64,000 nt of DNA. Origin: Bacteroidota bacterium. Its GTDB lineage: Bacteria > Bacteroidota > Bacteroidia > SXHM01. The notes beneath the pieces are model-generated. The model was not told where the DNA came from. It searched no databases and saw only the letters and a list, made by a program, of their open reading frames with translations. The stretch is from contig CANKAM010000002.1 in the NCBI GenBank assembly GCA_947479755.1, forward strand, positions 101,324 to 165,323. The letters are read 5' to 3'. This document shows, piece after piece, positions 13,608 through 39,544 of this stretch. Position 1 is the first letter of the stretch. The number at the start of each line of letters is the position of its first letter. The translations under genes and the position numbers were made by a program.

Positions 13608-13671
13608 GCAATGATGTTACCCTTATAGGGGTTAGGGTGTAAAAATAATTTCAGCAAATCCTTAGCACCTC

Positions 13672-14091
13672 CATTTGGGTTCCAAAAGGAGGTTTGGGTG
13701 GACAAGGAATTCTCATTTTGGTTTCAAAATGCACTTTCCATGGAAGGTTAAACCCCGTTTTGAAACCCAAATACGCTTTCCAAACTATTGGAGCAGCTAT
13801 TTTGAAATCAAAATGCACTTTCATCCGAGGAGAAAACATCATTTTGAAACCAAAATGCAGTTTCCATAAAGAGAGAAACATCATTTTGAAATCAAAATGC
13901 ACTTTTACCCGAGGAGAAAACCTCATTTTGAAACCAAAATGCACTTTCCGTGGAGTGAAAACCCCCATTTTGAAACCCAAATAGCCGATCTAAGGATTCG
14001 GAAACCTCATTTTGAAATCAAAATGCACTTTCCATGGAGGGGTAAACCCAATTTGTAAATCCAAATAATCGATCTACGGCTATATTAACCG
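13672..14091. repeat. Tandem array, strict 42-bp period, about 10 units, palindromic core CATTTTGAAATCAAAATGCAC
   Basis: Core starts counted at 13672, 13714, 13756, 13798, 13840, 13882, 13924, 13966, 14008, 14050 (all 42 bp apart). Confidence 0.95.
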
Positions 14092-14115
14092 AGACAGGTT
14101 AGTTGTTAAGTGCAT

Positions 14116-33579: not shown

Positions 33580-34995
33580 CTATTTCAACACCTTACTCTG
33601 GCAAACAAAATCCGATTTAGGAATATCGGTTTTTGCAATGGCATTGAAACCACCTTCCACTTCGGTGAAGTTGCGGTAGCCGCGTGCCTGCAAAATACTT
33701 GCTGCTATCATGCTGCGGTAGCCTCCGGCACAGTGCATAAAAAAATGCTCGTCAGGATTTATGTCTTTTACCCAGTCGTTGATATAAGCCAACGGCTTGC
33801 TGTAGGCTTCATTAATATGCTCGGCTTCATACTCTGTTTCTTTACGGATGTCCACTACTTTGCTTTCACCGTGTTTGTATTGATCTGCAAATTGTGCAGG
33901 TGTAATGCGGTTGATGGTGTCGGTTTCTTTTCCTGAATCGAGCCAGGTTTTGATGCCGCCTTTTAAATGCCCGAGTATATTATCAAAACCAACACGGCTA
34001 AGACGGGTAACGGTTTCTTCTTCTTTGCCGGGGTCGGTTACCAGCAGCAAAGGTTGCTTTACATCGGCAAGCAAGGCGCCTACCCAGGGAGCAAAATCAC
34101 CGTTCAGTCCTATGCTTACTGATTGCGGAATAAAGCCTTTCCAGAACTCGTTATTGCTGCGGGTATCTAAAATCAATGCGCCTGTTTCTTCGGCTGCTGC
34201 TTCAAACTCAGTGGCTGAAAGGGCACGCATTCCGTTATTTAAAACAGTTTCAAAACTGTCGTAGCCTTTTTTGTTCATGGCCACATTCATTCCGAAATAG
34301 GCAGGAGGAGGAAGCAAACCATCGGTTACTTCTTTCACAAATTCCTGCTCGGTCATGTTGGCGCGTAGGGCATAATTAAACTGCTTCTGGTTGCCAATGG
34401 TGGAAACAGTTTCTTTACTCATGTTTTTTCCGCAGGCGCTTCCCGCACCGTGTGCAGGATATACAATCACATCATCTGCAAGGGGCATTATCTTTTCGTG
34501 CAATGATTTATATAGCGTGGCAGCTAACTGTTCCATAGTCATGTTGGCGGCTTTCTGTGCCAGATCGGGGCGACCAACATCACCTATAAACAAAGTGTCA
34601 CCTGAAAAAATCGCATGGTCTTTTCCGTTTTCGTCAATCAATAAAAAGGTGGTGCTTTCCATAGTATGACCGGGTGTGTGCAGCACTTTTATTTTCAGTT
34701 TTCCGAGTTCAAATACTTGTCCGTCTTTAGCGCTGATGCAATCAAACTCACAGGCAGCATTAGGACCATAAATAATAGGAGCACCTGTTGAGCGGCTCAG
34801 GTCAACATGTCCGCTTACAAAGTCGGCATGAAAATGTGTTTCAAAAATGTATTTCAGTTTTACGCCATCGCGTTTAAGGCGGTCTAAGTACGGCTGTACT
34901 TCTCGCAGCGGGTCAATTATGGCCGCTTCACCATTACTTGTTATATAATAAGCACCTTGAGCAAGGCAGCCGGTATAGATTTGTTCAATGTTCAT
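33580..34995 (-). CDS. MBL-fold metallo-hydrolase with rhodanese domains (persulfide dioxygenase-like)
   Basis: THFHADFVSGHVDLSR; HTPGHTMEST; FSGDTLFIGDVGRPDL; C-terminal rhodanese HCAGGYRSMIAAS. Confidence 0.93.
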   Translation of the reverse strand: MNIEQIYTGCLAQGAYYITSNGEAAIIDPLREVQPYLDRLKRDGVKLKYIFETHFHADFVSGHVDLSRSTGAPIIYGPNAACEFDCISAKDGQVFELGKLKIKVLHTPGHTMESTTFLLIDENGKDHAIFSGDTLFIGDVGRPDLAQKAANMTMEQLAATLYKSLHEKIMPLADDVIVYPAHGAGSACGKNMSKETVSTIGNQKQFNYALRANMTEQEFVKEVTDGLLPPPAYFGMNVAMNKKGYDSFETVLNNGMRALSATEFEAAAEETGALILDTRSNNEFWKGFIPQSVSIGLNGDFAPWVGALLADVKQPLLLVTDPGKEEETVTRLSRVGFDNILGHLKGGIKTWLDSGKETDTINRITPAQFADQYKHGESKVVDIRKETEYEAEHINEAYSKPLAYINDWVKDINPDEHFFMHCAGGYRSMIAASILQARGYRNFTEVEGGFNAIAKTDIPKSDFVCQSKVLK

Positions 34996-35005
34996 GGGTT
35001 AATCA

Positions 35006-35040
35006 GTTCAAAGTTGAAAGTCCAAAGTTGAAAGTTTGTA
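35006..35040. repeat. 14-bp imperfect tandem repeat AAAGTTGAAAGTCC/AAAGTTGAAAGTTT
   Basis: Direct reading in the 5' region of the MBL/rhodanese gene. Confidence 0.7.
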
Positions 35041-35105
35041 GTACAAAGGTGCAAAGATGTTTTGAAACGGGCAGTTACATTTGTTACAATTATCGCAACA
35101 AGGAA

Positions 35106-36110: not shown

Positions 36111-36593
36111 TTACACCTTCTCAATCAACACCACCGCATAAGCCGAAACACCTTCTTCACGGCCTACATAGCCCAGCTTTTCTGTGGTGGTAGCTTTAAT
36201 GGAAAGGTCTTCTTCGCTGATGCCCATTACCTGAGCCAACACCCGTTTCATTTCAGGTATAAACGGGTTTATTTTTGGGCGTTGCAGGCAAATGGTGCTG
36301 TCAATATTGCCGATGGTATAGCCTTTTTCGGTAATCAGTTCCACCACTCTTTTCAGCAGAATTTTGCTGTCAATATTCTTGAACTCGCCAGCGGTATCAG
36401 GGAAATGAAAACCAATATCGCGCATGTTGGCTGCGCCCAGCAGGGCATCGCAGATAACGTGAATAAGCACATCGGCATCGCTATGACCAAAGGCACCATG
36501 GGTGTGGGGTATTTGTATGCCGCCCAGCCAAAAGGGGTGTCCTTCTCTCAGTTGGTGAACATCAAAGCCGAAGCCGGTACGGATTTTTGCCAT
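36111..36593 (-). CDS. ispF: 2-C-methyl-D-erythritol 2,4-cyclodiphosphate synthase
   Basis: RTGFGFDVHQL; AFGHSDADVLIHVICDALLGAA; ATTTEKLGYVGREEGVSAYA; start set at MAKIRTG. Confidence 0.96.
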   Translation of the reverse strand: MAKIRTGFGFDVHQLREGHPFWLGGIQIPHTHGAFGHSDADVLIHVICDALLGAANMRDIGFHFPDTAGEFKNIDSKILLKRVVELITEKGYTIGNIDSTICLQRPKINPFIPEMKRVLAQVMGISEEDLSIKATTTEKLGYVGREEGVSAYAVVLIEKV

Positions 36594-36692
36594 AACTCTT
36601 TTGGGCTTAGTTTTATTGCCCATGCAAATATAGATGTGAAGTTGTAATAACCAAGATTGCAATCTGGGATTACTCACCTATTTATATAAACT

Positions 36693-37007
36693 GCGTTTTC
36701 CGTTCAACCATGTCATTTTCCGTTCAACTACCCCTTTTTCTATCAAAAACCTGCTTTTTACCTCCAAAAGCACTCCTTTCAGAGGTGCGGACACTCCTTT
36801 TGGTAGTGCGGAGGCTCCTTTTACAGGTGCGGACACCCCTTTTACAGGTGCGGAGGCTCCTTTTGGAGGTGCGGACACTCCTTTTTCAAGTGCGGACATT
36901 ACTTTTAAAAGTGATTATGCCTCTTTTTTATGTAAAAAGAATACTTTTTGAAGAAAAAGGATAACTTTTTACAGAAAAGAGCTTCCTTTTGCTAAAAAAT
37001 GTTAAAA
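36693..37007. repeat. Tandem array, strict 21-bp period, about 15 units each opening with a T-tract
   Basis: Unit starts counted every 21 bp from 36693 to 36987; central units TTTTACAGGTGCGGACACCCC/TTTTACAGGTGCGGAGGCTCC. Confidence 0.95.
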
Positions 37008-37113: not shown

Positions 37114-38079
37114 ATGAGAAAATCAGAAGTAAAACCAATTTTTAACCAATCGTTTGCCGACCTGATGCAGCTTGGCGACAAAGCAGATGATTTAATGGAG
37201 CGCGATGCCGTAGAACTTCTGCCCTACGGTGTAGATGCCACCTTTCGCAGCGACACGGCTACACTTACCCAAGACCTTAAAGACTTTCCCACCGATGAGG
37301 AGTTGCAAGGTGCAGCAGCTGAACAAACAGAAATCAAAAACGAAAGTGCCGATGTTGTAAAGGTTCTTATTCGTTCAGTAATGGTAAGAGCTAAAAATGC
37401 TTTTGGCGAAAGCAGCGCAAAATACCGCAGGTTTGGCACTAAAGGTTTGGACGAATTAACGGATAATGATTTGCTCAAATGCGGCAAAAGAGTAGTGCGT
37501 ACAGCCACCCTTTTTCAGGTGCCCCTTTCAGCAAAAGGTTTAACTCCCGCTATGATTGCGGCTTTAAACACTAAGGTAACCACCTTTGATGATGACATTG
37601 ATGCACAGGACGATGCCATCCGTCAGCGCGACAATGCTACTGAAGACCGCATTGAACTGGGCAATGCGCTCTACAAAAAAATTACCGAACTCTTTGATTA
37701 CGGTAAGGATTATTGGATAACCCGTGATGAAGCTAAGTACAACGATTACGTTATTTATGACCAGCCCGCAGGCAACGACCTGTTTTTTGATGGCACTATT
37801 GCAGGCATGACCACTGAAAATGTGCTGGACGCAACTGCGGTAGATGAATATCTAGTTGGTGTGCAACTGCGTATAAAAAACACTACAGCAGGACCTGTTA
37901 TTGGAGGTTTGTTTTTCTACACCGCCATGAACCCCGGTGATGGCTGGAGTGGCTTAGGTCAAAACCTGAACCCCGGTCAGGAAGCCACCATTACTTTAGG
38001 TGCAGCAGATTACCGCCCGTATTTTAATATACAAAACCAAGGACCAAATGAGCAGACTTGGGAAGTGGAGATATTATAG
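37114..38079 (+). CDS. Uncharacterised 321-aa protein: helical N-terminal part and beta-rich C-terminal part
   Basis: Long ORF with uniform coding character, ATG after an AT-rich leader, followed by a terminator; no family recognised. Confidence 0.88.
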   Translation: MRKSEVKPIFNQSFADLMQLGDKADDLMERDAVELLPYGVDATFRSDTATLTQDLKDFPTDEELQGAAAEQTEIKNESADVVKVLIRSVMVRAKNAFGESSAKYRRFGTKGLDELTDNDLLKCGKRVVRTATLFQVPLSAKGLTPAMIAALNTKVTTFDDDIDAQDDAIRQRDNATEDRIELGNALYKKITELFDYGKDYWITRDEAKYNDYVIYDQPAGNDLFFDGTIAGMTTENVLDATAVDEYLVGVQLRIKNTTAGPVIGGLFFYTAMNPGDGWSGLGQNLNPGQEATITLGAADYRPYFNIQNQGPNEQTWEVEIL

Positions 38080-38094
38080 TAAGTGAGTAGAAAT

Positions 38095-38126
38095 AAAAAA
38101 GCCTCGCAATTTTGCGGGGCTTTTTT
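38095..38126. terminator. Bidirectional rho-independent terminator
   Basis: AAAAAAGCCTCGCAATTTTGCGGGGCTTTTTT between the 321-aa gene and porV. Confidence 0.85.
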
Positions 38127-38147
38127 ATTTATCTGTTTGAGTGAAAC

Positions 38148-39395: not shown

Positions 39396-39456
39396 CTGAT
39401 TTTTTTTGAAGGATTGCAAAGATAGATTTATTTGTGATTTTATTTGTTTTTGTTTT

Positions 39457-39539
39457 GGAACGCGGATGACGCTGATTTGGCTGATTTTCGCTGATTTTAA
39501 ATCCGTTTTTATCCGCACAATCCGTGTCATCTGCGTTCC
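39457..39539. repeat. 83-bp imperfect inverted repeat between porU and porV
   Basis: Arms GGAACGCGGATGACGCTGATT / AATCCGTGTCATCTGCGTTCC (3 mismatches over 21 bp by eye) with further internal pairing. Confidence 0.85.
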
Positions 39540-39544
39540 ATTAA

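What the first reader, a model, noticed from the sequence alone, without database searches (positions are those of the whole stretch)
36693..37007. Strict 21-bp intergenic array with phased T-tracts between ispF and an orphan gene
About 15 units start exactly every 21 bp (36693 to 36987), each with a T3-T6 run after pyrimidines. The central units look recently amplified (TTTTACAGGTGCGGACACCCC / ..GGAGGCTCC, loosely alternating as a 42-bp dimer). The flanks are sequence-diverged but keep the T-tract register. Several flank units also carry an A-tract about 10 bp into the unit (36735, 36756, 36924, 36945, 36966). Since 21 bp is two helical turns, intrinsic DNA curvature or a protein-binding array is a plausible function. 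Curvature from phased A-tracts is established; that it operates here is inference.
Basis: partly seen in the sequence, partly recalled or inferred. Interest (0 to 1): 0.75.

Follow-up and report, generated by a model that had tools for sequence, protein, structure and literature searches.

The report
21-base repeat arrays preceding gene family
Stretches of non-coding DNA repeated every 21 bases (two turns of the double helix) precede nearly every member of a little-known bacterial gene family, and at the same places in related species the repeat sequence is completely different while the 21-base spacing stays, so the spacing rather than the letters seems to be what matters.

Summary
The array is real: lag-21 identity is 59% against 26% shuffled. 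Eleven of 15 T-runs are spaced exactly 21 bp; the four left ones are spaced 19-22 bp. It is one of a large class. In 1.26 Mb sampled from two species of this genus, 24 of 41 non-coding repeat arrays have a period that is a multiple of 21 (other Bacteroidota: 3 of 38). Units are unrelated between arrays. At the ispF-porV site three unrelated 21-bp arrays occupy the interval in different congeners. Arrays are preferentially the upstream region of two paralogous families (the window's 'orphan' gene and a ~236-aa fn3-like family): 12/15 family genes against 47/982 others. Most F2 relatives in other families of the class also carry one. The arrays are non-coding, homogeneous in the middle and diverged at both ends. 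Predicted curvature is strong in this array (highest in the window) but is not shared by the class. Best reading: upstream regulatory arrays under concerted evolution, held to two helical turns so that units stay on one helix face whatever their sequence. The association is shown; the function is inferred. Closest known: the BrickBuilt 23-bp minisatellite-MITE and promoter tandem repeats that tune expression.

The parts
36693..37007 (.). non-coding tandem array, about 15 units of 21 bp (left units 19-22 bp)
   Evidence: lag-21 identity 0.59 vs 0.26 shuffled; stops in all frames
36693..36770 (.). diverged left units (TTTTCCGTTCAAC.., TTTTTCTATCAAAAACC.., TTTTTACCTCCAAAAGC); the last is an inverted relative of the central unit
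   Evidence: the same left end begins the related array G000:C9:80344-80486
36771..36907 (.). homogenised central block, TTTTACAGGTGCGGACACCCC / GGAGGCTCC, 42-bp dimers
   Evidence: 83% identical to the array at G000:C9:80344-80486
36908..37007 (.). diverged right units with T-runs and A-runs about 10 bp apart
37114..38079 (+). family-1 gene (321 aa): helical N-terminal part, conserved ~100-aa beta-rich C-terminal domain; no Pfam/NCBIfam family; 13 or more paralogues in the genome
   Evidence: array upstream in 11 of 12 evaluable paralogues of the own-genome search
38091..38130 (+). terminator-like hairpin after the family-1 gene; member of a dispersed palindromic element
36111..36593 (-). ispF, the other side of the divergent interval
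   Evidence: ispF-porV interval compared across congeners
13671..14099 (.). second array of the same class (42-bp units with palindrome CATTTTGAAATCAAAATG) between convergent genes
   Evidence: absent in G006 and G004, replaced by an unrelated 22-bp array in G001

Best explanation
The array is a member of a class of non-coding upstream arrays whose period is locked to two helical turns (mostly 21 bp; also 41, 42, 63, 65, 84, 85, 105 and 126 as multiples of 20.5-21.7). SHOWN: the class is abundant in this genus. The unit sequence is unrelated between loci and is replaced between close relatives while the period stays. Arrays are homogenised in the middle and diverged at the ends. They are strongly concentrated directly upstream of two paralogous gene families, also in other families of the class. 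INFERRED: they act on the DNA as regulatory arrays of the downstream gene. Every unit shows its core (often a short palindrome) on the same face of the helix, for a protein array or for a curved or looped upstream region. Slippage or unequal exchange adds and removes whole units; because one unit is two turns, such length changes alter dosage or distance without rotating the upstream DNA relative to the promoter. Periods off two turns are selected against, and the letters are free to drift. In this array the T-tracts additionally make the DNA strongly curved.
For: Period: 24/41 arrays at multiples of 21 in the genus (binomial P=3e-21); genus against other Bacteroidota P=1e-6. Near-21 variants stay close to two turns. 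Same site, unrelated arrays, same period: ispF-porV in G000/G006, G004/G002 and G003, alignment scores equal to shuffles; paralogous loci C5/C75 with flanks 83-90% identical but unrelated arrays. Association: 12/15 family genes against 47/982 others, Fisher P=2e-13; family 2 in own genome 8/8; most F2 homologues in other genera. Core and spacer differ in conservation in 12/29 arrays; palindromic units in 9/33 (P=3e-5). The 41-bp arrays of C24/C18, C3, C26 and C58 each rest on a different perfect palindrome, with symmetric changes. Middle homogeneous, ends diverged, P=7e-7, no polarity. G006 orthologue keeps the register with one compensated 1-bp gap pair. Helical alignment between a tract and a promoter is known to set promoter output (sabA, PMC4081817), and spacing between operators does so in nadA (PMC2791445).
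Against: No expression, binding or copy-number polymorphism data. Some arrays sit away from family genes: in the sampled DNA 47 other genes have one upstream, and 2 of 24 lie between convergent genes. Array position is otherwise like all intergenic DNA. In several F2 genes the array ends 2-14 bp before ATG, so it may be 5' leader RNA rather than promoter DNA. Bacteroidales arrays have 22-23 bp periods, which two exact turns of 10.5 bp do not explain. Middle homogenisation is also what neutral minisatellites do.
Confidence: 0.4

Rival explanations
1. Neutral dispersing minisatellite: arrays descend from a few 21-bp arrays, spread by ectopic copying, keep their period because they grow by whole units, and diverge fast by concerted evolution; the gene association only reflects duplication of array and gene together.
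For: Middle homogenised, ends diverged. Related arrays at different loci: window vs C9 83%, 13.7-kb array vs C67 80%.
Against: Most arrays show no similarity to each other. At the 13.7-kb site flanks are 95-98% identical between G000 and G001 yet the arrays are unrelated. Recurrence upstream of F2 genes in several families with unrelated sequences. Periods of 20.5, 21.25 and 21.67 stay near two turns without exact inheritance. Conserved cores with variable spacers.
Confidence: 0.3
2. Intrinsic curvature: phased T- and A-tracts bend the DNA upstream of the promoter, and curvature itself is the function of the class.
For: This array: z=10 against dinucleotide shuffles, z=5.1 against column-permuted arrays, highest in 64 kb; G006, C9 and G001 relatives also high.
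Against: Class mean z against column permutation 0.47 (29 arrays) and 0.04 (36 upstream arrays); the G005 relative has half the curvature. Wedge parameters were taken from memory.
Confidence: 0.13
3. The array works as RNA: a transcribed 5' leader of tandem hairpins controlling translation or stability of the downstream gene.
For: Folding more stable than column-permuted in 19/36 (mean z -1.9), -5 to -8 in some 41-bp arrays; sense strand A-rich in 31/36; some arrays end 2-14 bp before ATG.
Against: An RNA has no need for a two-turn period across unrelated units; the antisense strand folds better than the sense strand; arrays also lie between convergent genes; the window array is not A-rich on the gene strand.
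Confidence: 0.12
4. MITE-like element of the BrickBuilt kind: a mobile element with leader, tail and a tandem-repeat core.
For: Intergenic, tandem 21-23 bp units, partly dispersed, Bacteroidota (PMC4596501).
Against: No shared leader/tail or terminal inverted repeats among arrays (shared flanks found belong to paralogous gene loci); unit differs at nearly every locus; no clean empty site.
Confidence: 0.04
5. Coding heptad repeats (21 bp = 7 codons).
For: Open frames over some arrays, e.g. 36710-36964 (+) and 36678-36899 (-).
Against: Sense frames no more open than antisense (P=0.35); 8 of 36 arrays closed in all six frames; 41-, 65- and 85-bp periods are not multiples of three.
Confidence: 0.01

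Closest known systems
BrickBuilt minisatellite/MITE of Porphyromonas gingivalis (PMC4596501)
   Same: Bacteroidota; intergenic; imperfect head-to-tail 23-bp units; partly conserved, partly variable unit; copy changes by whole units; promoter activity reported
   Different: One unit family genome-wide with leader, tail and terminal inverted repeats; here the unit is different at nearly every locus, no leader or tail was found, the period is 21, and the arrays precede a specific gene family
Promoter-proximal tandem repeats that tune transcription (nadA, PMC2791445; sabA T-tract, PMC4081817)
   Same: Repeat tract in the upstream region; DNA length and axial alignment relative to promoter elements matter
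   Different: Those are 1-4 bp repeats whose length changes rotate the helix; here each step would be two full turns and the tract is 300-550 bp
TIGR arrays of TIGR-Tas systems (PMC12045711)
   Same: Tandem array next to one gene; repeats alike within a locus and different between loci; palindromic variants exist
   Different: 36-nt units with two spacers and box C/D motifs and a Nop-domain protein; no Nop hit here, units 21/41/42 bp
A-tract curved DNA upstream of bacterial promoters (general knowledge; genome-wide periodicity in PMC3940949)
   Same: T/A-tracts in phase with the helix in this array
   Different: Curvature is not shared by the other arrays of the class

Membership tests
BrickBuilt MITE | 23-bp tandem unit shared by all copies in the genome | tested here: not met
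   21-bp period; 36 arrays compared all against all, mostly no similarity
BrickBuilt MITE | leader and tail segments with terminal inverted repeats | tested here: not met
   No shared flanks except at paralogous gene loci
BrickBuilt MITE | intergenic location | tested here: met
Intrinsically curved DNA | predicted curvature above period-preserving controls | tested here: met
   Met for this array (z=5.1) but not for the class (mean z 0.04-0.47)
Intrinsically curved DNA | anomalous gel mobility at low temperature | not testable with these tools
   needs the bench
Phase-variable or tuning promoter repeats | located between regulatory DNA and the gene start | tested here: inconclusive
   Array upstream of the start codon, promoter position unknown; sigma-70-type scan of this region found none
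Phase-variable or tuning promoter repeats | copy number varies within a species and changes expression | not tested
   Only one genome per species was available
TIGR-Tas | associated protein with a Nop domain | tested here: not met
   No Nop hit in Pfam for 10 family proteins
TIGR-Tas | 36-nt unit with two spacers between edge and loop repeats | tested here: not met
   Units of 21, 41 or 42 bp
CRISPR array | conserved repeats separated by unique spacers, growth at one end, cas genes | tested here: not met
   No polarity (P=0.68); no cas-like neighbour recognised by eye in the flanking proteins listed; homogenised middle

The most novel reading that the evidence does not exclude
Array plus family-1/family-2 protein form a new two-part system: each paralogue works with its own array (as DNA operator array or as processed RNA), and array sequence and protein specificity change together, so that period and architecture are conserved while every locus has a private sequence.
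Probability: 0.15. Interest if true: 0.93.

Novelty: new variant of a known kind. Interest (0 to 1): 0.75.

Why it matters
It is a non-coding element recognised by its period and position rather than by its sequence, so alignment-based annotation misses it. At the same place in sister species the letters are unrelated and the two-turn spacing remains. That makes a clean test of whether helical phasing alone can be the conserved property of a bacterial regulatory region, and it gives two expanded, unannotated Bacteroidota protein families a linked partner element through which their function can be attacked.

Tried and rejected
Coding heptads: rejected by stop-codon counts. Curvature as the shared function: rejected for the class by column permutation. 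MITE/BrickBuilt membership: no common flanks or terminal repeats. CRISPR-like growth: no polarity. TIGR-Tas: no Nop domain. Rfam: nothing in the window. Gene orientation bias: none. Structure of the orphan protein: single-sequence AlphaFold model poor (pLDDT 40; helices, then a beta-rich C-terminus), so no fold search was made. Plasmid and phage records: no homologues of the one protein searched in each. Viral-contig searches gave no answer. A first pattern search used a wrong spacing (N14, period 22) and found nothing useful. Literature searches found no description of this class; most subscription journals are not held.

Full report
OBSERVATION. The array at 36693-37007 is real. Lag-21 identity is 0.59 (shuffled mean 0.26, maximum 0.34), and T-runs from 36777 to 36987 start exactly every 21 bp; the four left ones are spaced 19-22 bp. 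The central block is a 42-bp dimer array.

NOT ALONE. A relative of the array (83% identical) lies at G000:C9:80344-80486, and a phased CTTTT pattern finds further arrays with unrelated units. An unbiased autocorrelation scan of non-coding DNA (63-bp windows, at least 60% match, lags 10-130) gave 29 arrays in 855 kb of this genome, 15 of them at exact multiples of 21, and 12 arrays in 400 kb of a congener (G003), 9 of them at multiples of 21. Together 24/41 against an expectation of 5% (P=3e-21). In other Bacteroidota 3 of 38 are multiples of 21; Bacteroidales loci there have 22-23 bp arrays instead. Five related families sampled for 400 kb in all had none (7.6 expected at the genus rate). Near misses stay close to two turns: 41, 82, 85, 65/130. 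The window holds a second array of the class at 13671-14099.

CHARACTER. The arrays are not coding. Inside units a core is conserved and a spacer varies in 12 of 29 arrays; units are palindromic in 9 of 33. Some arrays start with, or switch half way to, the inverted unit without leaving the 21-bp register (L231, L117; G004).

TURNOVER WITH CONSTANT PERIOD. Between ispF and porV, G000 and G006 share the array and the orphan gene (G006 same register, one compensated 1-bp gap pair). G004 and G002 have a different 21-bp array (GGAAATGGCGGAAATGAGTAT) and no orphan gene; G003 a third one (ATTAGAATAGCATATTTGATT) with an XRE-like gene; G005 nothing. Alignment scores between these arrays equal those of shuffled sequence. 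At the 13.7-kb site G000 has the 42-bp array, G001 an unrelated 22-bp array, and G006 and G004 none, with flanks 95-98% identical between G000 and G001. The paralogous loci C5 and C75 have flanks 83-90% identical and unrelated arrays. Among genes 76-91% identical (C24, C18, C3, C26, C58) the 41-bp arrays rest on different perfect palindromes (CCGTAACGGTTACGG, CCATAACGGTTATGG, TTGGGGAAACCCCAA, CTGTGGCGGCCACAG); the step from the first to the second changes both arms symmetrically.

THE GENES. The 'orphan' gene 37114-38079 belongs to a family with 13 or more paralogues in the genome that share a ~100-aa C-terminal domain. A second family (about 236 aa, fn3-like C-terminus) has at least 8 members. 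Of 12 evaluable family-1 genes in that search 11 have an array upstream, of 8 family-2 genes 8. In the unbiased sample 12 of 15 family genes against 47 of 982 others have one (P=2e-13); for non-21 lags there is no association (1/15 against 71/982). Family 2 occurs in 22 of 293 genomes of the class. Most homologues in other genera and families (G014, G047, G064, G069, G105, G269, G270 and others) have an array of 21, 41, 42 or 105 bp immediately upstream with unrelated sequence. Family 1 co-occurs in all 12 genomes tested; by the strict rule arrays precede 9 of 11 in the genus and 8 of 15 elsewhere, and that rule did not demand a 21-bp lag. XRE-type regulators (named by eye from their sequence) flank several arrays (L090, L241, L253; G003 L100, L103). 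The proteins have no useful family match, apart from fn3 or CarboxypepD_reg hits to single members.

MECHANISM. Curvature is predicted to be extreme in this array and conserved in its orthologue, but class-wide it is no higher than the 21-bp period itself gives. RNA folding is stronger than in column-permuted arrays in 19 of 36, most of all in the 41-bp palindromic ones, and the sense strand is A-rich in 31 of 36, which would suit a transcribed leader; the window array is an exception. The one property common to all is the two-turn period. I therefore favour a DNA-level upstream array whose units must stay on one helix face (inferred), homogenised by slippage or unequal exchange (supported), and free in sequence (shown). 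The precedents for spacing or axial alignment of tracts with promoters are sabA and nadA (PMC4081817, PMC2791445). A neutral minisatellite with inherited period is the main rival and is not excluded.

LIMITS. One genome per species, many of them fragmented, so assembly errors in repeats are possible; ORFs were called by a simple rule; curvature parameters were taken from memory; background rates in the other genera could not be measured; the organism has no name here. The strict same-site comparisons rest on two loci and one paralogue pair. Several screens used different thresholds (0.60 for the unbiased scan, 0.54-0.56 for upstream regions), so the association counts are not strictly interchangeable.

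Noticed in passing
window 38091-38130 and about 39456-39542: Short palindromic GC-rich, terminator-like elements (AAAAAGCCCCGC..GCGGGGCTTTTT) present in many copies across the genus
   Followed up: partly
L160, L166, L169, L172, L182, L186, L187, L198, L207, L214: Bacteroidales genomes carry shorter intergenic arrays with 22-23 bp period, some of clear palindromes (e.g. TGAAAC..GTTTCA in L172); their relation to the 21-bp class is open
   Followed up: partly
L231:2294-2608 (G000:C78) and L117:19283-19594 (G003): Arrays that switch half way to the reverse complement of their unit without leaving the 21-bp register
   Followed up: partly
L245:2860-3269 (G000:C4): Array whose only conserved part is AATRYATT every 21 bp, occurring as AATGTATT or its reverse complement AATACATT; spacers look random
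   Followed up: partly
L090:3549-3920, L253:19337-19657, L241:10888-11286, L100:1038-1421, L103:18372-18713: Small XRE-type HTH genes (named by eye) directly beside arrays, three of them similar to each other
   Followed up: no
L256:11351-11841 (G000:C6): Two different unit families abut in one 21-bp register
   Followed up: no
window 35005-35056: Short 7/14/21-bp repeat (AGTTGAA) upstream of the gene at 33580-34995
   Followed up: no
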